Below, one piece after another: positions 3,367 through 64,000 of a DNA stretch of 64,000 nt. The position numbers were made by a program, and so were the translations under genes. Origin of the DNA: an uncultured Hyphomicrobiales bacterium (GTDB lineage: Bacteria; Pseudomonadota; Alphaproteobacteria; Rhizobiales; Beijerinckiaceae); assembly GCA_903847605.1 (NCBI GenBank), contig CAINED010000013.1:186001-250000 (forward strand). Reading direction: 5' to 3'. Under the pieces are notes generated by a model, which saw only the letters and a list, made by a program, of their open reading frames with translations, did no database searches and was not told the DNA's origin. How positions within the stretch are numbered: position 1 is the stretch's first letter; every line of letters begins with the position of its first letter.

Positions 3367-3377
3367 GAGCAGAGCAG

Positions 3378-4301
3378 ATGGCTTCCGTGCAAGGCGCAGC
3401 GCCGCAGACTTTCGATGCCACCGTCGAGGACATCAAGTCGTTCATGGCCGGCTGCACATACGAGGCGACGCGGCCGAAAGCTGACGACATTACTGCGCTG
3501 AGAGAGACCGTGGCTCAGGGCTCTTCAGTCTATGTCACCATGCTGCCGAACCGGCCACATGACGAACTGGTTGCGTCATCGGTGGCACTGCGCAATGCGG
3601 GCTTGCGGCCTGTACCGCATATATCGGCACGCCATTTCCGCAGTTTCGAGGAAATCGGCAACCTCCTTTCGCAGATGGTGGCACAAGCCGCCGTCGAAGA
3701 CATCCTGCTGATCGGCGGCGATATCGCAAAACCCGTCGGCAACGTGCCGGATGTGCTTTCCGTCATCGAAAGCGGCGTGGTCCAGCAGGCGGGCGTCAAG
3801 TCCGTCGGCGTCGGCGGTTTTCCCGACGGGCATCCTGCTGTTTCAGACGAAGAACTTGAAGCGAGCCTCGTCACCAAGCTCGCAGCGCTGCAGAACGGCG
3901 GCCTAGACGGCTATATCGTCACGCAGTTCTGCTTTCACGCGCATACGATCATTCGCTGGCTCGACTGGCTGAGGGCGCGCGGTATCGGTTCGCCCGTCAA
4001 GATCGGTCTGGCTGGCCCGACAAGCCTGATGACCTGGCTGAACTATGCGCGCAAGTGCGGGGTGAAGGCTTCAGCAGAAGCCCTGGCGTCTCGCAGCGGT
4101 CTGGTCCGTCATGCATTCAAATCGGTCGCGCCGGACCCCATTATCCGTACGCTCGCGGGCGCTGCTGCGGCCGGCCATATCGACAACGTGACGCCCCATC
4201 TCTTTGCATTCGGTGGCATCGGCGCGACAGCGAAATGGGCGCAGCCTGCCATCGCCGGACGGATCAGGCTGAATGCGGATCGCGGTTTTGATGCGATCTG
4301 A
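3378..4301 (+). CDS. Methylenetetrahydrofolate reductase-like protein (MetF family)
   Basis: MetF-family enzymes interconvert 5,10-methylene- and 5-methyltetrahydrofolate using FAD. The 307-residue length is close to bacterial MetF (about 296). Family landmarks appear in order: an N-terminal Glu in 'YEATRPK' at about residue 29, 'LLIGGD' (equivalent to the FAD-contacting Asp loop), 'GGFPDGHP' (the YPExHP region) and 'VTQFCF' with the folate-contacting Gln. Sequence is otherwise divergent from housekeeping MetF, so I leave the symbol empty. It follows the methyltransferase by 11 bases with a GGAG-type site. Such paralogues are often found in methyl-transfer or demethylation pathways, so the pair may move methyl groups between a substrate, SAM and folate; that is inference. 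Confidence 0.78.
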   Translation: MASVQGAAPQTFDATVEDIKSFMAGCTYEATRPKADDITALRETVAQGSSVYVTMLPNRPHDELVASSVALRNAGLRPVPHISARHFRSFEEIGNLLSQMVAQAAVEDILLIGGDIAKPVGNVPDVLSVIESGVVQQAGVKSVGVGGFPDGHPAVSDEELEASLVTKLAALQNGGLDGYIVTQFCFHAHTIIRWLDWLRARGIGSPVKIGLAGPTSLMTWLNYARKCGVKASAEALASRSGLVRHAFKSVAPDPIIRTLAGAAAAGHIDNVTPHLFAFGGIGATAKWAQPAIAGRIRLNADRGFDAI

Positions 4302-4331
4302 CGATTTGCAAAGACTTGATGCGCCGCCGAC

Positions 4332-5450
4332 TCAAACGCGCATCGGCATCAGCACATAAAGCGCGGCGGCGCCGTCGCGATCCTGAACCAGCGTCGGCGA
4401 GCCCGCATCGGCCAGCTTGAAGAGCGCTGTATCGCTATCGAGCTGTTGCGCGATGTCGAGCAGATAGCGCGCGTTGAAACCGACATCGATCGGCGCGGAA
4501 TCGTAATCGACTTCGATTTCTTCCGTCGCCGACCCGGAATCAGGGTTCGTCACGGTCAGCGTCATCTTGTTGTCGGCCAGCGACAGTTTCACCGCCCGCC
4601 CACGCTCTGACGAAATCGTCGAAACGCGGTCCACCGCCGCGATGAACTGGTCGCGCTCCACGACGAGGCGCTTGTCGTTACCACTGGGAATCACGCGCGC
4701 ATAATCGGGGAAAGTGCCGTCGATGAGCTTCGATGTCAGCACGACATCGCCGATGGTGAAGCGCGCCTTGGTCGTCGAGAGTTCGACAGTGACCTCCGCC
4801 GAGACGCCCTCGATCAGCTTCTGCAATTCGGCGACCGCCTTGCGCGGCACGATCACGCCCGGCATCCCGGCGGCCCCGGCAGGGGCGGGAATTTCGACAC
4901 GGGCGAGACGATGGCCGTCCGTCGCCACCGCGCGCAGCATGGTGTGTCCGGCGACATCGAGCGTGTGCACGTAGATGCCGTTGAGATAGTAGCGCGTCTC
5001 TTCCGTGGAGATCGCGAACTGCGTCTTGTCGATCAGCTTTTTCAGATCCGTCGCGGCGAGAGAAAACTTGTGCGTGAGATCGCCGGCGTTGAGATCGGGA
5101 AAATCACTTTCCGGGAGGGATTGCAGATTGAAGCGTGAGCGGCCCGAGCGCAGCAGAAGCTGCCCGCTGTCACCCGTCGTTTCGAGCGAGACCTGCGCGC
5201 CGTCGGGCAGCTTGCGGACGATGTCGTAAAGTGTATGCGCCGGCAGCGTCGTCGCGCCAGCCTGGCCCACATCGGACGCCACGGAGTCGGTCACTTCGAG
5301 ATCGAGGTCGGTCGCCTTCAGAATCAGCGAGCGCGCCTCGGTCTTGAGGAACACGTTGGACAGAATCGGGATGGTGTTCCGGCGTTCGACGACGCGATGC
5401 ACATGGCCCAGTGTCTTCAACAGTGCCGCTCGTTCGAGGGTGACTTTCAT
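4332..5450 (-). CDS. dnaN: DNA polymerase III beta subunit (sliding clamp)
   Basis: The beta clamp encircles DNA and tethers polymerase III. I start it at ATG 5450 ('MKVTLERAALLKTLGHVHRVVERRN'), giving 372 residues, the standard length; the open frame extends 25 codons further upstream but those codons do not look like the family. Three repeated clamp domains are visible, with 'RNTIPILSNV' near the start, 'YLNGIYVH' and 'ATDGHRLA' in the middle and a C-terminal 'YVLMPMRV' typical of the peptide-binding pocket end. dnaA is not next to it: the upstream gene is a divergent PBP, and the downstream neighbours before recF are two opposite-strand genes. It ends 30 bases from the convergent MetF-like gene with no obvious terminator. 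Confidence 0.97.
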   Translation of the reverse strand: MKVTLERAALLKTLGHVHRVVERRNTIPILSNVFLKTEARSLILKATDLDLEVTDSVASDVGQAGATTLPAHTLYDIVRKLPDGAQVSLETTGDSGQLLLRSGRSRFNLQSLPESDFPDLNAGDLTHKFSLAATDLKKLIDKTQFAISTEETRYYLNGIYVHTLDVAGHTMLRAVATDGHRLARVEIPAPAGAAGMPGVIVPRKAVAELQKLIEGVSAEVTVELSTTKARFTIGDVVLTSKLIDGTFPDYARVIPSGNDKRLVVERDQFIAAVDRVSTISSERGRAVKLSLADNKMTLTVTNPDSGSATEEIEVDYDSAPIDVGFNARYLLDIAQQLDSDTALFKLADAGSPTLVQDRDGAAALYVLMPMRV

Positions 5451-5622
5451 GTCCGGTCCGATCCAACGCCAATCCAGGGAAATTCTTCCGGCCCTGATAG
5501 GGCCGGGGGTTGCGGACCATATCATAGCGCGAGGCGGCGAATGTCCAATCGTCCCCGCCTTTTCCCCAGAATTTGGCCGGAAATCATGCCGGTTTCGGCA
5601 GCATCGCCGTCACGGAGCAACC

Positions 5623-5637
5623 TTAATTGGCCCTTAA
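5623..5637. promoter_or_regulatory. CtrA-type binding site (TTAA-N7-TTAA)
   Basis: TTAA at 5623-5626 and TTAA at 5634-5637 are separated by exactly 7 bases (TTGGCCC), the full consensus for the alphaproteobacterial cell-cycle regulator CtrA. It lies 88 bases upstream of the PBP1A-type gene and 173 bases upstream of dnaN, in their divergent promoter region. I found no other perfect TTAA-N7-TTAA in the intergenic regions I checked. Confidence 0.6.
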
Positions 5638-5724
5638 TCCCAGCCCGCTAGTTTGAGCCATTGCGGCATCCGCGCGCGCAAGCGGCGGGCGTCCACGTGT
5701 GCCTCGTAAGCGTGAACGGAAACC

Positions 5725-8076
5725 ATGAGCCGGCGGTTCGAGCGTAAGGAGCCCCACTTCGGCACGAAAGAGGATCGTTCGGACCTCCATGTCGGGCCGG
5801 ACGATGGACTTGTGCCGCATGGGCGCCGCAAAGGCGGAAAATCGGAATCGGCTGCGAAGTCCCGAGAACGGAAATCGCTGTTCGGCAGGCTGTTTTCGCG
5901 CAAGCCGAAGGAGTCTTCGAAGAAGGCCGAGAAGCCGGCCAAGGATGAAGGCAAGAGCAGCGCGCGCCGGAAGAAGCCGCGCCGCCGCCGTTCCATCACG
6001 GGCATGTTGGTCTACTGGTCCTTCGTGCTGGCGATCTGGGGCCTCGTGGCCGGCGCGGGCCTCGTCGCCTATCACGCTTCGAAACTTCCCCCGATCGACC
6101 AGCTCGCCGTGCCAAAGCGCCCGCCGAACATCGCGATCATGGCGGAGAATGGCACGCTTCTCGCCAATCGCGGCGACACCGGCGGAGCGGCCATCCATCT
6201 GCGCGAATTGCCGTCCTATGCGCCCAAGGCTTTCATCGCCATCGAGGACCGGCGCTTTTACTCCCATTGGGGTCTCGACCTCATGGGCATTGGACGCGCC
6301 ATCGTCCGCAACGTGACCAAGAGCGGCGGCGCAATGGAGGGCGGCTCCAGCATCACGCAGCAGCTCGCGAAGAATCTGTTCCTGACGCAGGAACGCACGA
6401 TGTCGCGCAAGATCCAGGAGGCGATCCTCTCGGTCTGGCTGGAACGCAAATATTCCAAGGACCAGATTCTCGAACTCTATCTCAATCGCGTCTATTTCGG
6501 CTCGGGCGCCTACGGCATCGAAGCCGCGGCGCAGCGCTATTTCGGCAAGAGCGCAAGGCAACTCACGCTTCCTGAGTCCGCAATTCTCGCCGGCCTGATG
6601 AAAGCCCCCACACGGCTCGCGCCGAACAGAAATCCGGATGGCGCCTCCGCCCGCGCAGCGCAGGTCGTCACGGCCATGGCGCGCGAAGGGCACATCACCG
6701 AGGCGATGGCGAAACTCGCGCTGGCGCGCCCTGCAACGGCGAAGAAAGAGCAGGGTAGCGGCTCGATCAATTACGTCGCCGATTACGTGATGGATATTCT
6801 CGACGACACGGTTGGCGCATTCGACACCGATATTATCGTGACGACGACGATTGATCCGACACTGCAGACAGCGGGCGAAAAAGCTTTGGCCGAAATCCTG
6901 TCGCGCAGCGGCGACAAGCTGAATGTCGAGCAGGGCGCACTTGTCGCAATGACTCCGGGCGGCGAGATCAAGGCGCTCGTCGGCGGGCGCGACTATTCCG
7001 AAAGCCAGTTCAATCGCGCGACCGCCGCGAAACGGCAACCGGGCTCGGCCTTCAAGCCTTTCGTCTATCTCGCCGCCATCGAGCGCGGGTACCGGCCCGA
7101 CTCGCGCGTGCTCGACGGGCCGATCAACGTGAAGGGCTGGCGTCCGGAAAATTCATCGCGCGAATATTTCGGCGAGGTGACGCTCACGCGCGCGCTCTCA
7201 CTTTCTCTCAACACAGTATCCGTGCGTCTCGGACTTGCGACCGGCCCGGGCGCTGTCGTGGCGACCGCGCATAAACTTGGCGTCACATCGCCCTTGCAAT
7301 CGAACGCATCGATTGCCCTCGGCACATCGGAAGTCACGCCTCTCGAACTCGTCGGGGCCTACGCGCCTTTCGCCAACGGCGGCATACGCATCCAGCCGCA
7401 CATCATCACGCAAATCAAGAAGACGAGCGGACAGGTGATCTACCGTCGCAAGGGCACGAGTTTCGGCCGCGTGATCGAGCCGCAATATGTGGCGATGATG
7501 AATGCGATGATGCAGGAGACATTGCTCACGGGTACAGCGCGCAAGGCCGAACTGCCGGGGTGGCAGGCGGCCGGCAAAACAGGAACCAGCCAGGAATATC
7601 GCGACGGCTGGTTCGTCGGTTACACCAGCCACATGGTTGCGGGCGTGTGGCTCGGCAACGACGATTCATCCGCGACGAAGCGCGTTTCAGGTGGAAATCT
7701 CCCGGTGGAAATCTGGAGCCGCTTCATGAAGGACGCACACAAGGGACTGCCGCCGCAGTACCTGCCGGGTGGCACATGGAGCGATCCGGGACGAACTGCG
7801 CCACCACCGGTTCCGCCCGCAGACATACCGCCAGCGCCGATGGCAAGCGCTCCGGCAGCAGCGAAGCCTCAAACGCAAGCGGCGCGCCCCGCTGGCGCGC
7901 CACTCAGTATAAATTCATCCGGTAAAGCGTTCGAACAAGCCCCGCGCCGCGAGACAGCGGCCGCGCCGCGCGGAATCAACGACCTCATTCCGCCTGCGCC
8001 AATCGGCACAAGCACAAGACCTGCGCCGATTCCGCAGCAGGATCGGAACCTGCTGCAGCGCATGTTCGGCGGCTAG
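5725..8076 (+). CDS. Bifunctional penicillin-binding protein 1A-type peptidoglycan synthase
   Basis: A class A PBP that polymerises glycan strands and cross-links peptides in the periplasm. The 783-residue protein has a long basic cytoplasmic tail (about 90 residues, Lys/Arg-rich), one transmembrane segment at about 92-116, a GT51 transglycosylase domain ('IEDRRFYSHWG' at about 172-183, 'GGSSITQQLAKN' at about 206) and a transpeptidase domain with SxxK at Ser441-Lys444, SxN at Ser494-Asn496 and KTG at 618-620. All catalytic motifs are intact. The C-terminal ~100 residues are Pro/Ala-rich and low complexity. A CtrA-type box in the promoter suggests cell-cycle control. The last codons overlap the convergent DUF1150 gene by 4 bases. 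Whether it is the PBP1a or a secondary PBP1 cannot be told from the window. Confidence 0.93.
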   Translation: MSRRFERKEPHFGTKEDRSDLHVGPDDGLVPHGRRKGGKSESAAKSRERKSLFGRLFSRKPKESSKKAEKPAKDEGKSSARRKKPRRRRSITGMLVYWSFVLAIWGLVAGAGLVAYHASKLPPIDQLAVPKRPPNIAIMAENGTLLANRGDTGGAAIHLRELPSYAPKAFIAIEDRRFYSHWGLDLMGIGRAIVRNVTKSGGAMEGGSSITQQLAKNLFLTQERTMSRKIQEAILSVWLERKYSKDQILELYLNRVYFGSGAYGIEAAAQRYFGKSARQLTLPESAILAGLMKAPTRLAPNRNPDGASARAAQVVTAMAREGHITEAMAKLALARPATAKKEQGSGSINYVADYVMDILDDTVGAFDTDIIVTTTIDPTLQTAGEKALAEILSRSGDKLNVEQGALVAMTPGGEIKALVGGRDYSESQFNRATAAKRQPGSAFKPFVYLAAIERGYRPDSRVLDGPINVKGWRPENSSREYFGEVTLTRALSLSLNTVSVRLGLATGPGAVVATAHKLGVTSPLQSNASIALGTSEVTPLELVGAYAPFANGGIRIQPHIITQIKKTSGQVIYRRKGTSFGRVIEPQYVAMMNAMMQETLLTGTARKAELPGWQAAGKTGTSQEYRDGWFVGYTSHMVAGVWLGNDDSSATKRVSGGNLPVEIWSRFMKDAHKGLPPQYLPGGTWSDPGRTAPPPVPPADIPPAPMASAPAAAKPQTQAARPAGAPLSINSSGKAFEQAPRRETAAAPRGINDLIPPAPIGTSTRPAPIPQQDRNLLQRMFGG

Positions 8077-48571: not shown

Positions 48572-48723
48572 ACGGCGCGTCTCTTAAGGGGGCGATGGCG
48601 CGCTTGTCAAATGAAACCCCCGGCTTTTCAGGTGATACGGAGGTACTTTTTGCCATATTGGCAAGCCTGTACACGCTGATACAAGTCGATTAGGACGTTC
48701 CCACCTTATCTGTTGGATTTATC

Positions 48724-49734
48724 ATGCCCGCATATCACAGCGATCAACCGGGTCTCGTGACGATTTTCGGCGGCAGCGGCTTCGTTGGACGCCACACGGT
48801 GCGCGCCTTCGCGCAGGCCGGCTGGCGGGTCAGGGTCGCGTGCCGGCGGCCGGACCTTGCGTTTTACCTTCAGCCCATGGGCCGCGTCGGCCAGATCACG
48901 GCCGTGCAGGCCAATGTCCGCTATCCCGCTTCGGTCATGGCCGCGGCAAAAGGCTCCGATGCCATCGTCAATCTCATCGGCGTGCTGACGCCGAAGGGCC
49001 GGCAAAGCTTCGATACCGTGCATGGTTTCGGAGCGCGGACCATCGCACGCGCCGCTGCCGAGGCAGGCGCGAAGCAATTGGTCCATATGTCGGCCCTGGG
49101 CGCGGCCGCGCAATCCGACTCGGCCTATGCGCGCAGCAAGGCAGCCGGAGAGGTTGCAACGCGCGAACTTTTTCCTGACGCGGCAATTGTCCGGCCTTCG
49201 CTGGTATTCGGTCCCGAGGACGAATTCTTCAACCGTTTCGCCGCGATTGCGCGCATGTCGCCCATTTTGCCGTTGTTCGGCGGCGGACAGTCGCGTTTTC
49301 AGCCGGTTTATGTCGGCGATGTCGCCAAAGCGATCGTGCAACTGAGCCATGCTCGTCCCGACAGCAGCGGCGGCGTGTACGAGTTCGGCGGACCCGACGT
49401 GCGGACATTCGAAGAGTTGATGAAATTCATTTGCGACGAGACCGGCCGCAAGCGGTTTCTCGTGCCCGTGCCTTTGCCGATCGCGCGCGCGCAAGCTTTC
49501 ATGCTGGAGCTTACGAACAAGTTGAGCCTTGGAATTTGGCCCGATTGGCTGACGGTTTCGCGCGATCAGATCGCCCTTCTGCAACACGACAACATCGTTT
49601 CGGACCAAGCCTCCGCCGAAGGCCGAACGCTTCAGGGGCTGGGCATTACGCCTGAATCCTATGAGGCGATCGTACCGTCCTATCTTTACCGGTTTCGCAA
49701 GACAGGTCAGTTCGAAACCCGCAGGACTTTCTGA
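48724..49734 (+). CDS. NDUFA9-like NAD(P)-binding epimerase-fold protein
   Basis: A 336-residue atypical SDR with the dinucleotide loop 'IFGGSGFVGRHTVRAFAQAG' (GGSGFVG at about 16-22), 'AVQANVRYPASV', 'LIGVLTPKGRQSFDTVHGFGARTIARAA' and a Tyr-X3-Lys pair in 'SAYARSKAAGE'. These match the NDUFA9 (complex I accessory 39-kDa) family, which in alphaproteobacteria is encoded away from the nuo operon. It may associate with complex I and bind NADPH; that is known for the mitochondrial protein and inferred here. It stands alone, 152 bases from the divergent tRNA. Confidence 0.85.
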   Translation: MPAYHSDQPGLVTIFGGSGFVGRHTVRAFAQAGWRVRVACRRPDLAFYLQPMGRVGQITAVQANVRYPASVMAAAKGSDAIVNLIGVLTPKGRQSFDTVHGFGARTIARAAAEAGAKQLVHMSALGAAAQSDSAYARSKAAGEVATRELFPDAAIVRPSLVFGPEDEFFNRFAAIARMSPILPLFGGGQSRFQPVYVGDVAKAIVQLSHARPDSSGGVYEFGGPDVRTFEELMKFICDETGRKRFLVPVPLPIARAQAFMLELTNKLSLGIWPDWLTVSRDQIALLQHDNIVSDQASAEGRTLQGLGITPESYEAIVPSYLYRFRKTGQFETRRTF

Positions 49735-49806
49735 CATTCCGCTGTGTGGAGGGCGCAGCATTTGATGTTTGCCGGCGATTTGGCAAACCAACGCAGGAGG
49801 GATCGG

Positions 49807-50790
49807 ATGGTAGAGACGACACGCCGGACTTTTGGACTCGGATTGGGCTCGCTGGCGGCGGCTCAGCTTCTGCCGGCAATGCCGGCAATAGCGCAGAGTT
49901 TTCCCTCGCAGGACATACAGTTCGTCTGCGGCTTCGCGGCAGGCAGCGGCGCAGATACCTACGTCCGCTTTTTCGCAGAAAAGATGAAGGGCGCCGCCAA
50001 ACGCAATGTCGTCGTGCAGAATCGCGTCGGCGCGCTGGGCAATATTGCGACCGAATTCGTGGCGCGTTCGAAACCCGATGGTCACACGGTCCTGATCACC
50101 GGCGGCAGCGCGCTCGCGGCGAACCACAATGTGATGAAAGCGCCGACCGTCGATATCGCCAACGAATTGCAGGTGATTGGAACGATCAACAAGCAGCCGA
50201 ACATGATCATGGTTGCTGCCGAAGCTCCTTGGAAAACGCTGGCCGAACTCGTCGACGCCATGAAAAGGAAGGGCGAAAAAGCCAGCTTCGCTATCGCCAA
50301 TCCGTCCGCGAAAGTCGTGGGAGCCGTATTCAAGGAGAAGGCGGGTCTGCAGGCCGTCGAGGTTCAATACAAGACTGCTGCGCAATATCTCAACGACCTC
50401 ACGAGCGGCAACGTCGACTATGCGATAGCGGACAATGTGCTGGCTGTGTCGCAAGCCAATGCCGGCCGCATGCGCAACCTCGCGGTCAGCACCGAACAAC
50501 GTCTTCTGGCTGCACCGAATTACCCGACGATGCGCGAACTCGGATACGACGTCACACTGACCAGCTGGTGGGGCGGATTCGTGCCCAGCGCAACGCCAAA
50601 GCCCATTGTGGATCAACTCGGCGCCTGGCTCAGTAGCATTGTCGGCAGTGAGGAAGGCAAGAAGTTCCTGAACAGCTTTGCCAGCGATCCCTGGGTTTCC
50701 TCGCCTGAACAGGCGCAAGCCTATTTCCGCGAGGAAATCAAAGCCTGGGGCGAATACGTCAAAATAGCAAAGATCGACAAGCAAGGCTGA
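49807..50790 (+). CDS. TctC/Bug-family periplasmic substrate-binding protein
   Basis: A 327-residue exported binding protein of the tripartite tricarboxylate transporter group. Start ATG 49807 is preceded by AGGAGG. The N-terminus has a twin-arginine-like signal (Arg6-Arg7 in 'TRRTFGLGLGSL', ending 'MPAIAQ'). The mature part has 'GFAAGSGADTYVRFFAEKM' and 'PDGHTVLITGGSALAANHN', typical Bug loops, then 'YKTAAQYLNDLTSGNVDYAIAD'. No tctA or tctB is next to it, so it is an orphan receptor in this window. Ligand unknown; Bug proteins bind small carboxylates and amides. Confidence 0.88.
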   Translation: MVETTRRTFGLGLGSLAAAQLLPAMPAIAQSFPSQDIQFVCGFAAGSGADTYVRFFAEKMKGAAKRNVVVQNRVGALGNIATEFVARSKPDGHTVLITGGSALAANHNVMKAPTVDIANELQVIGTINKQPNMIMVAAEAPWKTLAELVDAMKRKGEKASFAIANPSAKVVGAVFKEKAGLQAVEVQYKTAAQYLNDLTSGNVDYAIADNVLAVSQANAGRMRNLAVSTEQRLLAAPNYPTMRELGYDVTLTSWWGGFVPSATPKPIVDQLGAWLSSIVGSEEGKKFLNSFASDPWVSSPEQAQAYFREEIKAWGEYVKIAKIDKQG

Positions 50791-53314: not shown

Positions 53315-54148
53315 TCACGTTTCTGCCGCCTGTTTCTGCCGGTGTTCCTTGTAAAGATCCATGATCGCGGCAGCCGTTTCCTCGATCGACCGGCGGGTTA
53401 CGTCGATGATCGGCCATCCATGTGCGGCGAAGAGCTTTTTCGATTCCGCGATCTCCTCGGCGACCGACATGCGATCGACATAGGGCGTTTCCTGATCGGC
53501 GTTCAGGGTGAGCAGGCGATTTTGCCTGATCTGAACGATGCGCTCGGGCGAAGCGACAAGTCCGACCACCAGCGGCTTCTTGAGACCGGTAACCGAACTC
53601 GGCAAGGGCACATTGGGCACCAAGGGAATATTGGCCGTCTTGATCCCCCTGTTCGCAAGATAGATGCTGGTTGGCGTTTTCGAGGTCCGGCTCACGCCGA
53701 GAAGAAGCACATCGGCCTGTTCCATATTCTCTGGCTGCTGCCCATCGTCATGCATCATCGTGAAGTTCAGGGCGTCGATGCGCTTGAAATATTCGGCGTT
53801 GAGCATGTGCTGTGCGCCCGGCCGCGACGTCGAGACAGCCCCCAGATAAGACTGGAACAGCCCGATCACCGGCTGGAGGACCGAAAGGCAGGGGCTTCCC
53901 ATTTCCTCGCATGCCCGCTGCAAGACGTCCGAAAGTTCGGCGTCGACGAGCGTGTAAAGAACAATCCCCGGCGCGGTGGATATTTCGGCGATGGCCCGAT
54001 CGAGCTGGGTCTTGCTGCGGATCAGTGGATAGACATGTTCGATGGAGGCCGCGCTCAGAAACAGGGCGGAGACCGCGCGGCTTACGGCAATCAATGTTTC
54101 GCCCGTGGCGTCCGACACGAGATGGAGATGGAAATAGTTCCTGTTCAC
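53315..54148 (-). CDS. Putative pyruvate, water/phosphate dikinase regulatory protein (PPSR, DUF299)
   Basis: A bifunctional serine/threonine kinase and pyrophosphorylase family that regulates PEP synthase or pyruvate phosphate dikinase. I choose GTG 54148 ('NRNYFHLHLVSDATGET'), preceded by GGAAGG at 5-base spacing; a GTG 14 codons earlier is less family-like. That gives 277 residues. 'SDATGET' and the P-loop 'GVSRTSKT' at 151-158 are the signatures; 'GVSRTSKTPTSIYLANRGIKTANIP' is diagnostic. Its gene lies immediately left of the putative origin, as the RP001-type gene does at Caulobacter Cori. Its end is one base from maf. Confidence 0.92.
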   Translation of the reverse strand: MNRNYFHLHLVSDATGETLIAVSRAVSALFLSAASIEHVYPLIRSKTQLDRAIAEISTAPGIVLYTLVDAELSDVLQRACEEMGSPCLSVLQPVIGLFQSYLGAVSTSRPGAQHMLNAEYFKRIDALNFTMMHDDGQQPENMEQADVLLLGVSRTSKTPTSIYLANRGIKTANIPLVPNVPLPSSVTGLKKPLVVGLVASPERIVQIRQNRLLTLNADQETPYVDRMSVAEEIAESKKLFAAHGWPIIDVTRRSIEETAAAIMDLYKEHRQKQAAET

Positions 54149-54204
54149 TTGCGCCTTCCGATTGCCGCTGAAGAAATGGAACCTTTCCACCCCCAGTGTA
54201 TTTT

Positions 54205-54213
54205 TGGGGATAA
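54205..54213 (-). promoter_or_regulatory. DnaA-box-like 9-mer
   Basis: TGGGGATAA matches the reverse-complement DnaA consensus TGTGGATAA at 8 of 9 positions. It lies just inside the left edge of the putative origin. Confidence 0.45.
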
Positions 54214-54397
54214 CGGGGGTGATTTCAGCTGGCGGCCCGATAGAGCCGATATCCCCATCTTATTGTCAACAGCCGGCTCGGCGCTGTTGTGGCCAGGGAA
54301 CATTGGTGAAAACAAATCGCCGTCGCCATCCACAATAGGGACATGGGATAACGTTTATTAATCGACTGATATCAATATCTCTTCCGATTTTTCCAAC

Positions 54398-54406
54398 GGT
54401 GGATAA
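54398..54406 (-). promoter_or_regulatory. DnaA-box-like 9-mer
   Basis: GGTGGATAA matches TGTGGATAA at 8 of 9 positions. It sits in the AT-rich part of the putative origin, beside the GANTC cluster. Confidence 0.5.
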
Positions 54407-54435
54407 CTTACAATCAGCACTACGTTTCATGTGTA

Positions 54436-54511
54436 GAGTCTCTGGATCATCGGACGCAAAATACCGTCTTTGAATCCCACAGACTAGGAACTACAAACAG
54501 ATTCTAGAATC
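54436..54511. other. Cluster of four GANTC (CcrM) sites in the putative origin
   Basis: GAGTC (54436-54440), GAATC (54472-54476), GATTC (54500-54504) and GAATC (54507-54511) lie in 76 bases. The last two are arranged as the perfect 14-bp palindrome AGATTCTAGAATCT (54499-54512). GANTC is the target of the alphaproteobacterial cell-cycle methylase CcrM; clustering in origins is established in Caulobacter. Confidence 0.65.
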
Positions 54512-54533
54512 TCTATAGAATTAGGCTTTCCGC

Positions 54534-57505: not shown

Positions 57506-59563
57506 TCAGCTATTCAGCGCAGCCTTAATGGACTCCTCGGTAGCGAGGGGCAGAGAGCATGTCTGTCCGCTGCATATGTAAGCGACAGCCTTTCGTTCGT
57601 AATCGCTGTCCGCAAAGCGCTGGCTGTCGCCACTCGAGATATCATCGAGTTCGACCACAAAGCGATTGAGCTTTGTTGCATCTCTGGCTGCGGCCGCGAT
57701 GCTTGAAGTATCGGAACCCACGAATATGACCTGCGTCCCATTCAGCGCGGTATCCAGAGCATTCAGGAAAGTCGAGTGGCCGAAAGGGTTTTTCAATGCC
57801 TGGGATGTGATCGCCTGAGTCATTCTGCGAGCGGTTTCGAAATACTTCATTTCGCCCGTTACGGCCGAGATCAGATGGAGCGTGCGGAGCAAAACGCCGT
57901 TTGGATTTGGGGTGGCGTCGTCGTTCGTATTGAAGGTGCGATAGATGACATCGGAGGAATCTCTAGCCGGCAACGATAGGACGCCGGTATCGGAATCGGC
58001 ATGAAATTCGATGACGGTATCTGCGAGCCGCTTTGCTATCGCGAGATAAGAGATATCCGTCGATCCATGCAGTGTGATTTTTCCGGATCGGTCATGGCTT
58101 CGCAATGCGAGGGCCGCCTGGATCAGATAGGTGTAGTCGCTCGCCATGCCTGGCCAGACATATTTCCCCTCGCGATAAGAGTGTGCGATGCGCAGGAAGC
58201 CATTTTCTTCGCGGGTCATTGAATCGATAACGAAACGAAATGCCGCGCGGGCCAGATCGAGCCAATCTCTTCTGTCGAATGCAAATGACGCATCGGCGAG
58301 CGCTGCTATCATCAATCCATTCCAATCGGCCAGCAGCTTGTCGTCGCGCAGCGGAGGGATGCGGTGTTGCCGTGCGGCAAGAAGTTTTTCCCTTAGTGGT
58401 GCAAGGCGCGCCTCTGTCTCTTGCGTGATGTTATCGTCCTGCAAGCGGTTCAGGACGTTCGTACGCATTCCCGTATGCGCCTCCTGCCAATTGCCGCCGT
58501 CCTGTACGTCATAATGTCTGTTAAACAGGTTCGCTTCGTCGTGGGTTAGGACCTGCAGAATTTCCTCCGAGGTCCAGCAATAATATTTTCCTTCAACCCC
58601 TTCGCTGTCAGCATCCATGCTCGCGGCGAAGGCGTGTCCCTCGACGATCATCTCTCGCTGTAGCCAGCCAACCATCGATTCGGCTGCGTTTTGGAAAACG
58701 TGGTCACCTGTCTGGGCCCAGGCGACCGAAAGAAGCTCGAGAATCTGCGCGTTGTCGTAAAGCATTTTTTCGAAATGGGGGACGTGCCAACGATCATCGA
58801 CCGAGTAGCGCGCAAAGCCGCCACCGACATGATCGTGGATGCCGCCGCGGATCATCTGCGTGAGCGTTAGAAGGACGGGGTGGCGGAATTTGGCATCGCC
58901 GGAACGTTCAGCCGCGCGCCAGAAGAGTTCGAGGATCTGGCTGTTTGGAAATTTGGGGCTTCCCTGCATGCCCCCGTTCACGTCGTCCATGTGCGGATAG
59001 AGACGCCGGGCGAAATCGTCGAGTATCGGATTCGTGATGGCTCCGGATTCTTCACTGGCTATCGACTGTGTGACTGCTTTGCGCAGAGCCCCCACATTAT
59101 TGCTGACCTTCTCCGGCGCCTCGTTAAAAGTTCTCGCTACTTCCTGGAGCACTTGGCAGAACGAAGGCCGCCCGTAAGCGGCTTCTTTCGGAAAATAGGT
59201 TCCGCCCCAGAACGGTTCGCCTGAGGGCGTGAGGAATATGGTCAAAGGCCACCCGCCGGGCTGTCCGAGCGCGTGCAGCGCCGCCATGTAGATCTGATCG
59301 ATATCCGGGCGTTCCTCACGGTCGACCTTCACATTGATGAAGAGAGAATTCATCAGTTCGGCGGTCGATTCGTCTTCGAAACTCTCATGCGCCATCACAT
59401 GGCACCAGTGGCAGGCGGCGTAGCCGATCGAGAGCAGAATAGGTTTTCCAGCCGCTTGTGCTTCCGCGAGGGTTACCTGGCCCCATTCCTTCCAATGAAC
59501 CGGATTGTCCCGGTGTTGCAGAAGATAGGGACTTGCGGCTTTATCGAGCTCGTTGCGGGCCAT
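57506..59563 (-). CDS. DUF255 thioredoxin-domain protein (YyaL/SSP411 family)
   Basis: A 685-residue cytoplasmic protein. I start at ATG 59563 ('MARNELDKAASPYLLQHRDNPVHW'), with AGGA 6 bases upstream. The N-terminal thioredoxin-like domain has the CxxC pair at Cys51-Cys54 ('GYAACHWCHVMAHESFED'), and 'NVKVDREERPDIDQIYM' follows. The middle and C-terminal parts are helical (alpha/alpha-toroid type: 'SPKFPNSQILELFWRAAERSGDAKF', 'GGIHDHVGGGFARYSVDDRWHVPHFEKMLYDNAQILELLSVAW'). Function unknown; relatives are linked to redox or glycan metabolism. It is the only minus-strand gene between the putative origin and the right end. Confidence 0.9.
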   Translation of the reverse strand: MARNELDKAASPYLLQHRDNPVHWKEWGQVTLAEAQAAGKPILLSIGYAACHWCHVMAHESFEDESTAELMNSLFINVKVDREERPDIDQIYMAALHALGQPGGWPLTIFLTPSGEPFWGGTYFPKEAAYGRPSFCQVLQEVARTFNEAPEKVSNNVGALRKAVTQSIASEESGAITNPILDDFARRLYPHMDDVNGGMQGSPKFPNSQILELFWRAAERSGDAKFRHPVLLTLTQMIRGGIHDHVGGGFARYSVDDRWHVPHFEKMLYDNAQILELLSVAWAQTGDHVFQNAAESMVGWLQREMIVEGHAFAASMDADSEGVEGKYYCWTSEEILQVLTHDEANLFNRHYDVQDGGNWQEAHTGMRTNVLNRLQDDNITQETEARLAPLREKLLAARQHRIPPLRDDKLLADWNGLMIAALADASFAFDRRDWLDLARAAFRFVIDSMTREENGFLRIAHSYREGKYVWPGMASDYTYLIQAALALRSHDRSGKITLHGSTDISYLAIAKRLADTVIEFHADSDTGVLSLPARDSSDVIYRTFNTNDDATPNPNGVLLRTLHLISAVTGEMKYFETARRMTQAITSQALKNPFGHSTFLNALDTALNGTQVIFVGSDTSSIAAAARDATKLNRFVVELDDISSGDSQRFADSDYERKAVAYICSGQTCSLPLATEESIKAALNS

Positions 59564-59624
59564 GGTGTTTCCTGCGGTTACCGATTTTTGTTTCATGTTT
59601 ATGGCGTCGGGTCTATGAGGCCGC

Positions 59625-60950
59625 ATGCACAAGACGATTTTTGCCTTTGCGACGCCAGAAGGGCGCTCCGCCATCGCTGTGCTTCGCCTTTCCGGTCCAG
59701 AATGTAGGGCGGTGTGCACGAAAATCGCGGGGGATGTGCCGTCTCCGCGAACGGGCAGTGTGCGCGTTCTCCGCGATCCGCGCGATGGCGATGTGATCGA
59801 CGAAGCCATTGTATTCTGGACGCCGGGTCCCGGGAGTTTCACCGGCGAGGATTGCCTTGAGTTTCACGTTCACGGAAGCAGGGCAGTCAGGTCGGCGCTT
59901 CTGGCTACGCTGGGAAGCCTGCCGGATTGTATCCCCGCCGGCCCCGGCGAGTTCACTTTGCGAGCTTTCCTGAACGGCAAGACCGACCTGGTTAAGGTCG
60001 AAGGGCTGGCCGATCTTCTGGAGGCAGAGACACAGGTTCAGCGCCGCCAGGCCATTTCGCAGCGCAGCGGCGCCGTTCATGTGCGTGTCGGTGCCTGGCG
60101 CGAAAAGCTGCTTGGCGCGATGGCGCTGTTGGAAGCCTCGATAGATTTTTCCGATGAAGACGATGTGCGAACCGATCTCAAATCGGAGGTCGGAAACGCG
60201 CTTGGTTCGCTCGAAATTGACCTGGTCAGGGAGATCGGGAGGGCCAGGTATGCCGAGGTTATTCGCGACGGGTTCAAGGTGGCGATCGCGGGCCCTCCCA
60301 ATGTCGGAAAATCCAGTTTGATCAACGCGTTGAGTCGACGAGATCTGGCAATCGTCACCGAGCATGCCGGGACTACACGGGATATATTGGAAGCCTCTCT
60401 GGAAATCGACGGTATGCTCGTGCGGTTCTTCGATATGGCCGGCCTTAGGGATACCGAAGATCCGGTGGAGCGCATTGGTGTGGAGCGCGCCCGGGCGCTT
60501 GCAGCAAGTACGGATCTGGTGCTTTGGCTGCGTTCGTCTGATCAAGAGATGCCACCGGCGCCTGAAGGACTCGCCCATGAGGGACGGCTAAGACATATTT
60601 TCACAAAGGCGGATCTTTGCTCAGCGAGCGCTTTCGAGCCGTCGCGCATTTATGTTTCGTCGAAAAGTGGATACGGAATAGCGGAGCTTATAGAGCTGAT
60701 AGGCGAACTTGCGGCAACGGCCGCTGGGCGTGGCGAGCCAGCCGTGTTGACGAATGCGCGGCAGGCCAGCTGCGTCTCTCAGTGCTACGAAGCAGTCGCG
60801 CGCGCGAAGTCGCTACTGTCCGTTGATAGCGCCGAGGTCGTATGCGAAGAACTCCGTGCGGCCAATGATGCGCTATCCAGATTGACAGGTCGGATTGGGC
60901 CTGAAGAAGTTCTGGGGGCAATCTTCTCCCGGTTCTGCATCGGCAAGTGA
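59625..60950 (+). CDS. mnmE: tRNA uridine-5-carboxymethylaminomethyl modification GTPase MnmE
   Basis: MnmE, with MnmG, installs the 5-carboxymethylaminomethyl group on wobble U34. The 441-residue protein begins 'MHKTIFAFATPEGRSAIAVLRLSGP' (folate-binding domain), has 'GEFTLRAFLNGKTDLVKVEGLADLLEAET' in the helical domain, the inserted G domain with 'AGPPNVGKSSLINALSRRD' (P-loop), and ends 'FSRFCIGK' with the catalytic Cys438. It starts 61 bases from the divergent DUF255 gene. A parS site begins three bases after its stop. Confidence 0.97.
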   Translation: MHKTIFAFATPEGRSAIAVLRLSGPECRAVCTKIAGDVPSPRTGSVRVLRDPRDGDVIDEAIVFWTPGPGSFTGEDCLEFHVHGSRAVRSALLATLGSLPDCIPAGPGEFTLRAFLNGKTDLVKVEGLADLLEAETQVQRRQAISQRSGAVHVRVGAWREKLLGAMALLEASIDFSDEDDVRTDLKSEVGNALGSLEIDLVREIGRARYAEVIRDGFKVAIAGPPNVGKSSLINALSRRDLAIVTEHAGTTRDILEASLEIDGMLVRFFDMAGLRDTEDPVERIGVERARALAASTDLVLWLRSSDQEMPPAPEGLAHEGRLRHIFTKADLCSASAFEPSRIYVSSKSGYGIAELIELIGELAATAAGRGEPAVLTNARQASCVSQCYEAVARAKSLLSVDSAEVVCEELRAANDALSRLTGRIGPEEVLGAIFSRFCIGK

Positions 60951-60952
60951 AA

Positions 60953-60968
60953 TGTTTCACGTGAAACA
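60953..60968. other. parS centromere site 1 (mnmE-mnmG gap)
   Basis: TGTTTCACGTGAAACA is a perfect copy of the bacterial parS consensus, and the surrounding 20 bases (60951-60970) are a perfect palindrome, AATGTTTCACGTGAAACATT. It is in the 36-base gap between mnmE and mnmG, about 6.6 kb right of the putative origin and 2.6 kb left of parA. Established as the ParB-binding site that nucleates the partition complex. Confidence 0.95.
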
Positions 60969-60986: not shown

Positions 60987-62855
60987 ATGAGCTACCAGCA
61001 ATACGAGGTAATAGTAGTCGGTGGAGGTCACGCGGGCTGCGAAGCCGCCGCCGCCTCCGCCCGCATGGGCGCAAGAACCTTACTGATTACGCATCGCCAT
61101 GATTCAATCGGTGCTCTTTCGTGCAACCCCGCAGTTGGGGGGCTGGGGAAAGCACATCTGGTCAGGGAAGTCGACGCATTGGACGGACTGATTGGCAAGG
61201 TGGCGGATCAGGCGGGAATCCACTTTCGCGTATTGAACCGCAGCAAGGGGCCGGCGGTGCGCGGTCCACGCGCGCAAGTGGATCGGCGCTTGTATATGCA
61301 AGCGATGCAGCGCGAGATTGGTAAGCAGCAGAACCTCCACGTTATTGAAGGAGAGGTTGCCGAGCTTCAGTCGGATAGCTCAAAGGTATCAGGCGTTTCA
61401 CTGGCGGATGGACAGCGATTCGCATGCGTATCAATTGTCATCACTACCGGCACTTTTCTTCGTGGCGTGATCCATATTGGCGATAGGCAGACGCCGGCAG
61501 GGCGAGTTGGCGAAGCGCCGTGCAATACGCTGTCCCGCAGTTTCGAGGAACTTGGATTAAGATTGGGGCGGCTAAAAACAGGAACGCCGGCGAGATTGGA
61601 CGGTCGGACAATCGACTGGGACAGCCTTGAATGCCAGCCCGGCGATTCGGATCCGGAACCATTTTGTACAACCGGCGAAACGAATCCGCGCAATCAGGCG
61701 CTTTGTCATATTACCCGCACAACCGAGCTCACGCACTCGATTATTCGTGAGAATATCCAGAAATCAGCTGTTTATTCCGGATCGATCTCCGGGCGGGGAC
61801 CTCGGTATTGTCCCTCGATTGAGGACAAGATCGTTCGTTTCGGAGAGCGTGAAAGTCATCAGGTCTTTCTTGAGCCTGAAGGACTCGATGACCCTACTGT
61901 TTATCCGAACGGCCTATCGACATCCTTGCCTGAGGCCGTGCAAGTGAAATTCCTCAGATCGATCCCGGGACTTGAACATGTGGAGATCTTCCGTCCGGGT
62001 TACGCCATCGAGTACGATCATGTCGATCCAACCGAACTCGATTCCACGTTGCAGGTGAAGAAGCTCACAGGGCTTTATCTTGCCGGCCAGATCAATGGTA
62101 CCACCGGGTATGAAGAAGCGGCGGCGCAGGGTCTGTTGGCGGGTATCAATGCAGCAGCGGCAGCTAAAGGCAAGGCGGCCTTCATCCTTGATCGCTCGCA
62201 AGCTTACATTGGTGTCTTAGTCGACGATTTGATCACGCGCGGCGTCACGGAGCCATATCGCATGTTCACCTCGCGTGCAGAATATCGATTGTCGCTGCGG
62301 GTGGATAATGCGGATCAACGGTTGACCGGCCTTGGGGTGGTGGCTGGCTGTGTAGGCGAGCCGCGAAAACAATATTTCGAGAGAAAAATGGAGTTGTTGC
62401 AAGAATCCACAAAGCTCACTCAGGAGCTTTCGATCACTCCAACTCGGGCCAAAACTTGCGGTCTGACCGTGAACCAGGACGGCGCTGCGCGGAGCGCCTT
62501 TTCGCTGCTTTCTTACCCTGAGATCTCGTGGGATGATCTGGAACGCATTTGGCCCGAACTTTCGGGAATACCGAAGGAAATCGCCTTACAAGTCGAAAAT
62601 GACGCCAGATACCAAGTCTATCTTTCGCGGCAGCAGGCGGACATCAGGGCTTTCAAAGGAAGCGAGGCAGGGCATATTCCTGCCGACATCGAGTTTGCCC
62701 GCATCGGAGGACTTTCTTCTGAGATTCGGAGCAAACTTGAACTCGTCCGGCCGACGACGGTCGGCCAAGCGAGCCGGATCGAGGGGATGACCCCAGTTGC
62801 CCTCGCAGCCTTGCTCGCCCACATTCGCGTTAGGCAATCGCGAGTTGGCATTTAG
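60987..62855 (+). CDS. mnmG: tRNA uridine-5-carboxymethylaminomethyl modification enzyme MnmG (GidA)
   Basis: MnmG is the FAD- and NADH-dependent partner of MnmE. The 622-residue product starts with the FAD loop '[26 protein letters not shown]' and has '[26 protein letters not shown]' and '[19 protein letters not shown]', typical of GidA. '[12 protein letters not shown]' and '[22 protein letters not shown]' follow. The C-terminal MnmE-binding/tRNA-binding domain ends '[22 protein letters not shown]'. It lies directly after parS site 1 and 5-20 bases before rsmG. Confidence 0.98.
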
Positions 62856-62875: not shown

Positions 62876-63481
62876 ATGGCTGAGGCAAAGCTTAGCGGTG
62901 TTTCACGTGAAACAATCGCCGATCTGAAAATTTATGAGCGTGAGCTTCGCCGGTGGCAGAAAATCAAGAACCTGGTTGCGCCATCCACTTTGGAGCATCT
63001 TTGGACACGGCACTTTTCGGATTCGGCGCAACTGCTGGCGCTAAAGCCTGACGCTCGTCGCTGGGCCGATCTCGGCTCCGGCGCTGGCTTTCCGGGACTG
63101 GTAATGGCCACGCTCCTGAAGAACGTTCCGGGTGCAAGCGTTCACCTCATTGAAAGCGATCACCGAAAATGCGCATTTCTGCGGGAAACAGCGAGAGCGC
63201 TCGGCGCGCCTGCGATTATCCACAATGCGCGCGCGGAGGAAGTGGTTTCTGACCTGCAAGACGTTGAAATTGTTACGGCACGGGCGCTCGCCCCCTTACG
63301 TGATCTTCTGGAATTAGCTATGCCGTTGCTGGAAAAAGGGGCCGAGGGCCTTTTTCTCAAGGGACAAGATGTTGCATCTGAATTGACCGATGACGCTATA
63401 TTTAGTAGGGTTACGCTTGAATTTTTCCCGAGCATAACGTCCGAAGCGGCCAGAATCGTTGGCGCAAAACTAATCTGTTAG
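62876..63481 (+). CDS. rsmG: 16S rRNA (guanine(527)-N7)-methyltransferase RsmG (GidB)
   Basis: Methylates G527 of 16S rRNA; loss gives low-level streptomycin resistance in many bacteria. I start at ATG 62876, with GGAAAG ahead; a GTG at 62861 is possible and has no clear binding site. The 201-residue protein has the Rossmann SAM loop 'WADLGSGAGFPGLVMATLL' and 'VHLIESDHRKCAFLRETARALG'. The N-terminal 'SGVSRETIADL' is encoded by the second parS site; I know 'VSRET' as a frequent N-terminal feature of alphaproteobacterial RsmG proteins for this reason. parA follows 43 bases downstream. Confidence 0.96.
   Translation: MAEAKLSGVSRETIADLKIYERELRRWQKIKNLVAPSTLEHLWTRHFSDSAQLLALKPDARRWADLGSGAGFPGLVMATLLKNVPGASVHLIESDHRKCAFLRETARALGAPAIIHNARAEEVVSDLQDVEIVTARALAPLRDLLELAMPLLEKGAEGLFLKGQDVASELTDDAIFSRVTLEFFPSITSEAARIVGAKLIC
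62899..62914. other. parS centromere site 2 (inside rsmG)
   Basis: A second perfect TGTTTCACGTGAAACA lies in the 5' part of rsmG, 1.9 kb from the first and 609 bases before parA. Here it is coding, supplying the residues 'VSRET', so it is conserved in DNA and protein at the same time. Confidence 0.95.
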
Positions 63482-63523: not shown

Positions 63524-64000
63524 ATGCGGGTCCTCGTATTGGCGAATCAGAAGGGCGGCGTCGGGAAGACGACCACGGCCATCAACTTGGGTACTGCGCT
63601 CGCCGCGATAGGCGAAAAGGTGCTCATTGCGGACTTGGATCCGCAGGGGAACGCATCCACGGGGCTTGGAATCGATCGCCAGAACCGGCGGCGCTCGACC
63701 TACGATGTAATGGTCGGCGAAGGAACGCTTCTGGAAGCGGCCAAGCCTACCGCGGTGCCGGGTCTTTATATTGCGCCTTCAACTCTCGATCTGTTGGGTG
63801 TCGAACTGGAAATCGCGCCGGCGGCCGATCGCGCCCACCGATTGAAGAAGGCCGTCGCCGATCTGGCGAAGCATGATGATGCGGAAACAGGGCCTTTCAC
63901 CTATGTGCTGGTGGATTGCCCGCCTTCGCTCAACCTGCTGACGATCAACGCTCTGGCTGCGGCGGACAGCGTGCTTGTGCCGCTGCAATGCGAGTTCTTC
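63524..64000 (+). CDS. parA: Chromosome partitioning ATPase ParA (5' part, runs off the window)
   Basis: ParA is the DNA-binding ATPase that moves ParB-parS complexes to the daughter half. Only the first 159 codons are present. The deviant Walker A 'NQKGGVGKTTTAI' is at residues 8-20, the A' box 'IADLDPQGNAS' at about 35-45 and 'VLVDCPPSLNLLTINAL' (Walker B region) lies near residue 128. All match the chromosomal ParA/Soj type. The start ATG 63524 is 42 bases after rsmG; parB is expected just beyond the window. Confidence 0.96.
   Translation, partial: MRVLVLANQKGGVGKTTTAINLGTALAAIGEKVLIADLDPQGNASTGLGIDRQNRRRSTYDVMVGEGTLLEAAKPTAVPGLYIAPSTLDLLGVELEIAPAADRAHRLKKAVADLAKHDDAETGPFTYVLVDCPPSLNLLTINALAAADSVLVPLQCEFF

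What the first reader, a model, noticed from the sequence alone, without database searches (positions are those of the whole stretch)
54149..54533. Candidate chromosomal origin between the PPSR gene and hemE
Sequence shows a 385-base non-coding gap, the longest here, at the point where gene direction changes (mostly leftward to its left, mostly rightward to its right). It contains two 8/9 DnaA-box-like 9-mers and an AT-rich stretch at about 54350-54520. Established knowledge: in Caulobacter the origin lies between hemE and an RP001-type gene, and mnmE-mnmG-rsmG-parA lies close by. The dnaN locus is about 49 kb away, so an automatic 'dnaA/dnaN start' would misplace the origin.
Basis: partly seen in the sequence, partly recalled or inferred. 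Interest (0 to 1): 0.8.

Follow-up and report, generated by a model that had tools for sequence, protein, structure and literature searches.

The report
Chromosome start site in a soil alphaproteobacterium
The 385-base gap is very probably where this bacterium starts copying its chromosome, in the place known from Caulobacter and its kin, so it is ordinary in kind; less expected is that many related species carry a binding motif for the cell-cycle regulator CtrA in this gap while this species has lost it.

Summary
The PPSR-hemE gap (54149-54533) is very probably the chromosomal origin, of the known alphaproteobacterial hemE/COG1806 type. On its 523,724-bp contig the gap is the best single GC-skew changepoint (permutation p 0.005) and the only place with two one-mismatch DnaA boxes within 385 bp. 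Both parS sites of the genome lie 6.4 and 8.4 kb away, followed by parA. dnaA (82 kb) and dnaN (49 kb) show neither signal. One closed relative, sampled, shows a skew flip near the same gap; a second shows none. Against: the contig's cumulative-skew minimum is elsewhere; no DnaA box is perfect; a stretch inside mnmG has as many two-mismatch boxes. It often carries a CtrA motif TTAA-N7-TTAA (53 of 79 gaps, shuffled 0.65; 17 of 49 in other families of the order). The window and its two nearest relatives lack it, although a CtrA-like gene is present. No experiment was possible.

The parts
54149..54533 (.). Candidate chromosomal replication origin: divergent intergenic gap between PPSR and hemE
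   Evidence: two one-mismatch DnaA boxes (unique within 385 bp on the contig), best skew changepoint of the 523,724-bp contig; 47% GC against 58% in the flanks
53315..54148 (-). PPSR (pyruvate, phosphate dikinase/PEP synthase regulator; PF03618, COG1806/DUF299, RP001 type), left flank
   Evidence: NF003742 E 3.2e-101; PF03618
54534..55589 (+). hemE, uroporphyrinogen decarboxylase, right flank (TTG start where L022/L023 have GTG)
   Evidence: TIGR01464 E 6.2e-119; alignment
54205..54213 (-). DnaA-box-like 9-mer, one mismatch (TTATCCCCA)
54398..54406 (-). DnaA-box-like 9-mer, one mismatch (TTATCCACC)
54249..54257 (+). weak DnaA-like 9-mer, two mismatches
54263..54271 (+). weak DnaA-like 9-mer, two mismatches
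54326..54334 (+). weak DnaA-like 9-mer, two mismatches (contains TCCACA)
54441..54449 (-). weak DnaA-like 9-mer (TGATCCAGA), one mismatch from TGATCCACA (Caulobacter G-box; sequence recalled)
54348..54447 (.). Least stable 100 bp of the gap; candidate unwinding region
   Evidence: Nearest-neighbour stability: 0.07% of contig windows are as unstable
54484..54523 (.). Least stable 40 bp of the gap, hemE-proximal; second candidate unwinding region
   Evidence: 0.014% of contig windows are as unstable
54356..54374 (+). Best remaining match to the CtrA operator found near this place in relatives; degenerate (6 of 8 core bases)
   Evidence: PWM score 1.1; perfect sites 13.1 or more; null 95% point 0.4
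54436..54511 (.). Four GANTC (CcrM target) motifs at 54436, 54472, 54500 and 54507; the last two lie in the 14-bp palindrome 54499-54512 shared with L022 and L023
   Evidence: not significant for this gap alone (P 0.114)
60953..60968 (.). parS site TGTTTCACGTGAAACA (perfect), between mnmE and mnmG
   Evidence: one of only two found in the 5.34-Mb draft at up to one mismatch; the control motif gave one match
62899..62914 (.). parS site (perfect), in the 5' part of rsmG
63524..64000 (+). parA (runs past the window end, C13:249524-250321); the next ORF (C13:250351-251241) is the presumed parB
   Evidence: PF13614 E 3.2e-56; ORF positions; parB named from position and a recalled N-terminus only, not tested
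4332..5525 (-). dnaN, about 49 kb from the gap; not the origin
   Evidence: TIGR00663; no one-mismatch DnaA box between 3300 and 6600

Best explanation
The 385-bp PPSR-hemE gap is the DnaA-dependent chromosomal origin (oriC), of the alphaproteobacterial hemE/COG1806 type. Most likely mechanism: DnaA assembles on a cluster of weak boxes (two at one mismatch, four more at two), melts an AT-rich stretch (54348-54447 and/or 54484-54523), helicase is loaded and forks leave in both directions; the two parS sites 6.4 and 8.4 kb to the right, with ParA and probably ParB encoded just beyond, then segregate the copies. SHOWN: neighbourhood, gap, weak-box cluster, low duplex stability, parS, skew changepoint. 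INFERRED: DnaA binding, unwinding, initiation, segregation. In many relatives a TTAA-N7-TTAA operator in the gap suggests that CtrA can block or tune initiation; in this lineage that operator is degenerate, so timing presumably relies on DnaA itself, on CcrM methylation of GANTC, or on weak or half CtrA sites (inferred).
For: Flanks hemE and PPSR; hemE divergent from PPSR within 2 kb in 85 of 99 family genomes. Only place on 523,724 bp with two one-mismatch DnaA boxes within 385 bp; the densest 385-bp windows at two mismatches (7) overlap it, though they take in the 5' end of PPSR. Best single skew changepoint at 239-241 kb, permutation p 0.0052; 10-kb windows left +0.0019 (11 of 24 negative), right +0.0166 (4 of 28 negative), p 0.00076. 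Both parS sites of the draft within 8.8 kb, parA beyond. Closed relative G061, sampled: 10 left stretches mean -0.0188, 9 right +0.0196, p 0.0004, sign change near the gap and near its antipode; its best two-mismatch window in 400 kb (7) overlaps its gap, and at one mismatch its gap ties with one other place. 79 gaps: one-mismatch boxes 96 against 4.45 shuffled; 49 gaps of other families in the order: 82 against 5.2. Gap kept when hemE or PPSR is gone.
Against: No perfect DnaA box in the gap; the contig's only perfect one is at window 63216. At two mismatches the gap alone has 6 boxes, and a 385-bp stretch inside mnmG also has 6. Cumulative-skew minimum of C13 is at 6534. Left-arm skew is near zero, and leading-strand third-position bias is seen only on the right arm. 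In G061 the cumulative minimum is 16 kb and the changepoint about 30 kb from the gap. Closed relative G036 shows no skew signal (p 0.71). No run of four DnaA-trio-like triplets in the window gap. One IHF-like match, at chance level (P 0.097). No exact CtrA operator. The contig is a tenth of the draft genome; intergenic regions of the other contigs were not ranked.
Confidence: 0.9

Rival explanations
1. The gap is only a divergent promoter region for PPSR and hemE with cell-cycle regulator sites; the origin is elsewhere.
For: Two divergent genes need promoters; GANTC (PMC3973325 passages) and CtrA sites (PMC4433202 passages) also act at promoters. No perfect DnaA box.
Against: DnaA-box excess in 79 and 49 relatives' gaps, persistence of the gap when hemE or PPSR is absent, skew changepoint and parS next to it. 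A promoter explains none of these.
Confidence: 0.06
2. The origin is close by but not in the gap: in the mnmG-rsmG-parA stretch at about 61.6-63.3 kb.
For: A 385-bp window with 6 two-mismatch DnaA boxes starts at 61595-61711, as many as in the gap alone, and the contig's only perfect DnaA box is at 63216. Skew there is strongly positive, and the turning point is not resolved better than about 10 kb.
Against: The cluster lies in coding sequence and has no one-mismatch box; skew already turns at or before the hemE gap; in G061 the skew minimum lies on the PPSR side of the gap, away from mnmG. DnaA titration or ParB loading could explain these boxes (inference).
Confidence: 0.03
3. The origin is at dnaA or dnaN, as automatic annotation would assume.
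For: Bacterial origins are usually adjacent to dnaA (PMC10225481 passages).
Against: No one-mismatch DnaA box at C13:157000-160000 around dnaA or at window 3300-6600 around dnaN; the eight largest 30-kb-flank skew jumps of the contig are all at 234-241 kb.
Confidence: 0.01

Closest known systems
Caulobacter crescentus Cori (hemE / COG1806 origin)
   Same: Same flanks (hemE, COG1806 = DUF299/PPSR), similar size (404 bp), AT above genome average (PMC1914354 sections); weak DnaA boxes (PMC4468827 passages); parABS nearby (recalled)
   Different: Cori has five CtrA sites, five DnaA boxes and an IHF site; the window gap has no exact CtrA operator and one chance-level IHF-like match
Rickettsia prowazekii origin (hemE / RP001)
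   Same: Same flanks, 384 bp (PMC1914354 Table 1)
   Different: Rickettsia gap is 82.6% AT; window gap is 53% AT
Sinorhizobium meliloti chromosomal origin
   Same: Same bacterial order (recalled); origin without CtrA motifs and not bound by CtrA although CtrA is present (PMC4433202 passages)
   Different: Among the relatives nearest to the window two thirds of gaps (53 of 79) do carry an exact CtrA operator, so absence here looks like a local loss
Predicted oriC of Methylocystis sp. SC2
   Same: Hyphomicrobiales relative (relation recalled), predicted by Ori-Finder with hemE among the indicator genes, not near dnaA, three DnaA boxes, GC lower than the chromosome, no clear GC-skew inversion (PMC3794950 passages)
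   Different: Prediction only; no CtrA analysis in the passages seen

Membership tests
Alphaproteobacterial hemE/COG1806-type chromosomal origin | Lies between divergent hemE and a COG1806 (PF03618) gene, or next to one of them | tested here: met
Alphaproteobacterial hemE/COG1806-type chromosomal origin | Intergenic region above 300 bp with AT content above the genome | tested here: met
   385 bp; 53% AT in the gap against 42% in the flanks; contig bins mostly 37-42% AT
Alphaproteobacterial hemE/COG1806-type chromosomal origin | Cluster of DnaA boxes, best of the intergenic regions | tested here: inconclusive
   Unique on the contig at one mismatch and above shuffles, but all boxes imperfect, equalled at two mismatches by a stretch of mnmG, and only one contig of 92 ranked
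Alphaproteobacterial hemE/COG1806-type chromosomal origin | Turning point of strand asymmetry | tested here: met
   Best single changepoint of the contig, p 0.0052; not its cumulative minimum; closed relative G061 agrees within 16-30 kb, G036 does not
Alphaproteobacterial hemE/COG1806-type chromosomal origin | parS and parA nearby | tested here: met
   two perfect parS at 6.4 and 8.4 kb, the only two in the draft; parA
Alphaproteobacterial hemE/COG1806-type chromosomal origin | IHF site (WATCAN5WTR) | tested here: inconclusive
   one match at 54359, P 0.097; 10 of 79 gaps against 6.5 shuffled
Alphaproteobacterial hemE/COG1806-type chromosomal origin | DnaA binding, unwinding and initiation in the cell | not testable with these tools
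   needs experiment
CtrA-gated origin (Cori subtype) | At least one TTAA-N7-TTAA operator in the origin | tested here: not met
   0 exact or one-mismatch sites in the window gap; best PWM score 1.1

The most novel reading that the evidence does not exclude
A CtrA operator (TTAA-N7-TTAA) in the hemE/PPSR-type origin is a widespread, repeatedly lost feature of the window's order (inferred to be Hyphomicrobiales), not a Caulobacter peculiarity; the window's lineage is one of several that dropped the operator while (here at least) keeping CtrA, so the order is a natural series of origins with and without a direct CtrA brake. In the same family the origin stays in place when hemE or PPSR leaves its edge, so neither flank is required.
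Probability: 0.5. Interest if true: 0.55.

Novelty: new member of a known kind. Interest (0 to 1): 0.35.

Why it matters
It fixes the zero point of the map for this genome and for relatives annotated from dnaA or dnaN. [quoted passage not shown] meliloti lacks them (PMC4433202, passages), while CtrA binds next to the Hyphomonas neptunium origin (PMC7200025, passages). Here 53 of 79 gaps among the relatives nearest to the window and 17 of 49 gaps from other families of the order carry the exact motif with its exact spacing, and close relatives with and without it make the role of a direct CtrA brake testable.

Tried and rejected
Rejected or dropped. (1) Alternative origin at dnaA/dnaN: no one-mismatch DnaA box, no skew jump. 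(2) GANTC cluster as a special feature of this gap: 4 sites, 10.4 per kb against 2.37 in the contig, but P 0.114 against the gap's own dinucleotide shuffles. The set-level excess (393 against 167.5) is largest in Microvirga, Bosea and Methylobacterium gaps and milder elsewhere (189 against 122); GANTC in Caulobacter origins is already reported (PMC3973325 passage). (3) DnaA-trio motif: runs of four or more in 7 of 79 gaps, none in the window. (4) IHF site: chance level. (5) An idea that the CtrA operator is always followed by a TCCAC box: only 9 of 70 sites within 20 nt, background 2.7%; dropped. (6) A GGGNAGGG polarity test: 10 against 12 left, 16 against 6 right; weak. (7) ORF 48706-50784:- first looked conserved by tblastn, but the overlapping plus-strand ORF 48724-49734 is an epimerase, so the minus ORF is probably not a gene.

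Caveats of counts. The 79 gaps are the window, 65 of 80 relatives with hemE beside PPSR and 13 of the 15 without; L071 and L092 were left out because no hemJ match marked the boundary. The gap edges are tblastn-derived approximations. They are related sequences, not independent events. The 49 order gaps come from 60 regions fetched, chosen from the 108 hemE-bearing genomes of 111 searched; the other 11 had no PPSR match (one of them was cut off at 208 bases) and were not counted; 3 of those 11 have a CtrA motif in the last 480 bases. The gene caller was home-made and misplaces some starts, hemE's included.

Full report
WHAT IS THERE. The window is G000:C13:186001-250000 of a 5,336,734-bp draft in 92 contigs; contig C13 is 523,724 bp. 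Left of the gap, on the minus strand, are PPSR, maf, coaE and dnaQ; right of it, on the plus strand, hemE, hemJ, rho, mnmE, mnmG and rsmG, then parA and a presumed, untested parB. The gap is 54149-54533. dnaN is at 4332-5525; the dnaA match is at C13:157125-158561, 82 kb from the gap. The nearest named relatives by PPSR are a Beijerinckiaceae MAG (91%) and a MAG labelled Rhizobium sp. (89%), so the organism is a Beijerinckiaceae-like member of Hyphomicrobiales (inference).

THE OBSERVATION. Two 8-of-9 DnaA boxes are present where stated, and six 9-mers within two mismatches; shuffles of the gap reach such numbers with P = 0.004 and 0.001. On C13 the gap is the only place with two one-mismatch boxes within 385 bp. 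At two mismatches the densest 385-bp windows (7) start at 53942-54016 and take in the 5' end of PPSR as well as part of the gap; the gap alone has 6, and the only other stretch of the contig with windows of 6 is inside mnmG, starting at 61595-61711. The gap's least stable 40 and 100 bp are among the 0.014% and 0.07% most unstable windows of the contig. The claims of longest gap and of gene direction are only roughly true.

STRAND ASYMMETRY. On C13 the best split of 1-kb skew bins is at 239-241 kb, the gap being at 240.1-240.5 kb; with 5-kb bins it is at 240 kb, permutation p 0.0052, and the eight largest skew jumps between 30-kb flanks are at 234-241 kb. Against this, the left arm is near zero rather than negative, the cumulative minimum of C13 is at 6534, and the third-position bias expected for leading-strand genes appears only on the right arm. 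I sampled two closed relatives with 20 stretches of 20 kb each. In G061 (3.30 Mb) 10 stretches left of the gap average -0.0188 and 9 right of it +0.0196 (p 0.0004), changing sign again near the antipode; the stretch that holds the gap is negative on both sides. In a contiguous 400 kb around its gap the cumulative minimum is 16 kb and the changepoint 30 kb from the gap; the best two-mismatch DnaA window overlaps the gap, while at one mismatch the gap ties with one other place. In G036 (4.19 Mb) there is no signal (p 0.71). Lack of a clear skew inversion is also reported for Methylocystis SC2 (PMC3794950 passages).

SEGREGATION SITES. The whole draft has exactly two parS-like sites at up to one mismatch, both perfect, at window 60953 and 62899, 6.4 and 8.4 kb from the gap. 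Of 20 loci fetched from relatives, 6 have two parS sites (G096, G067, G017, G042, G089, G064) and 2 have one (G078, G018); 12 have none, most of them too short to reach mnmG, but G028 covers the mnmE-mnmG junction and has none.

RELATIVES: THE GAP OUTLIVES ITS FLANKS. hemE is divergent from PPSR within 2 kb in 85 of 99 family genomes; 6 have no PPSR match and 8 have the two genes on different contigs. In 15 of 80 relatives no hemE is found beside PPSR; in 13 of these PPSR then faces hemJ across 407-559 bp, although all 99 family genomes searched have a hemE match, 98 of them over the cut-off. Conversely G017, G042, G078 and G089 have no PPSR match and keep a gap of roughly 440-530 bp between maf and hemE. 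On the tree the hemE-less forms fall in several separate places. So neither flank is needed, and hemE or PPSR alone is an imperfect marker.

RELATIVES: SITES IN THE GAP. In 79 gaps one-mismatch DnaA boxes number 96 against 4.45 in shuffles, and exact TTAA-N7-TTAA 70, in 53 gaps, against 0.65. The spacing is specific: 53 of 79 gaps at N7 and 0-9 at the other spacings from N2 to N15, except N3 (20) and N14 (19), which look linked to one sequence shared by Microvirga gaps (that reading is mine). In hemE-type gaps the first site lies a median 170 bp from the hemE start (sd 43). It is present in 45 of 66 hemE-type and 8 of 13 hemJ-type gaps, so it is not simply part of the hemE promoter. In 49 gaps from 38 other families of the order, 17 gaps in 15 families have an exact site against 1.15 in shuffles, at scattered positions. 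The window, L022 and L023 form one clade without it, while L026, next to them on the tree, has it; the best remaining matches score 1.1, -6.2 and -2.3, against at least 13.1 for perfect sites and null 95% and 99% points of 0.4 and 4.8. In all 26 of 79 gaps lack it, on several other branches too. The genome keeps a CtrA-like regulator (L209:1462-2208:-; PF00072 and PF00486; the name CtrA rests on recalled resemblance, no call named it), a RAMA-domain protein as in CcrM and a GcrA-family protein.

COMPARISON WITH WHAT IS KNOWN. The hemE/COG1806 origin of Caulobacter (404 bp) and Rickettsia (383-396 bp), with DnaA, CtrA and IHF sites, is described in PMC1914354 (sections 3 and 10 and part 1 of section 4 read). 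The same paper reports predicted origins with few or no CtrA sites, so CtrA sites do not define the type. I therefore file the gap as a member of that type, and not as a member of its CtrA-gated subtype. [quoted passage not shown] I found no paper reporting CtrA sites in origins of this family; the searches were made, listings of the open-access library only (passages of some listed papers read), so subscription papers were not covered.

VERDICT. A sound, ordinary assignment of a known kind of origin (confidence 0.9). The added value is comparative: flank loss with the gap retained, and a spacing-exact CtrA motif common among relatives but missing in this lineage.

Noticed in passing
window 63216-63224 and 61595-62095: The contig's only perfect DnaA box lies in rsmG beyond the second parS, and the only other stretch with six two-mismatch DnaA boxes in 385 bp lies inside mnmG between the two parS sites.
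   Followed up: partly
L027, L032, L037, L042, L043, L046, L047, L049, L050, L052, L053, L054, L062: hemE is missing from the origin edge in several separate branches while hemJ and rho stay; in G028, G039 and G071 hemE lies elsewhere, with none of the other query genes in the 10-12 kb fetched around it.
   Followed up: partly
L189, L190, L191, L192 (G017, G042, G089, G078): No PPSR match in the sampled genomes of two genera, while the gap remains between maf and hemE.
   Followed up: partly
L076, L097, L086, L096, L101: Microvirga origins hold 11-12 GANTC motifs in about 365-470 bp, up to 6 within 60 bp.
   Followed up: no
G000:C13:158699-158773: Four GANTC motifs lie within about 120 bp upstream of the first start codon of the dnaA ORF; this is one of only ten places in the contig with three in 60 bp.
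   Followed up: partly
window 57506-59842: A DUF255/thioredoxin-like gene on the minus strand sits between rho and mnmE; it is found there in only some of the relatives examined.
   Followed up: no
G000:C13:1-240000: The arm left of the gap shows almost no strand bias, unlike the right arm; a past inversion or imported DNA could explain it.
   Followed up: no
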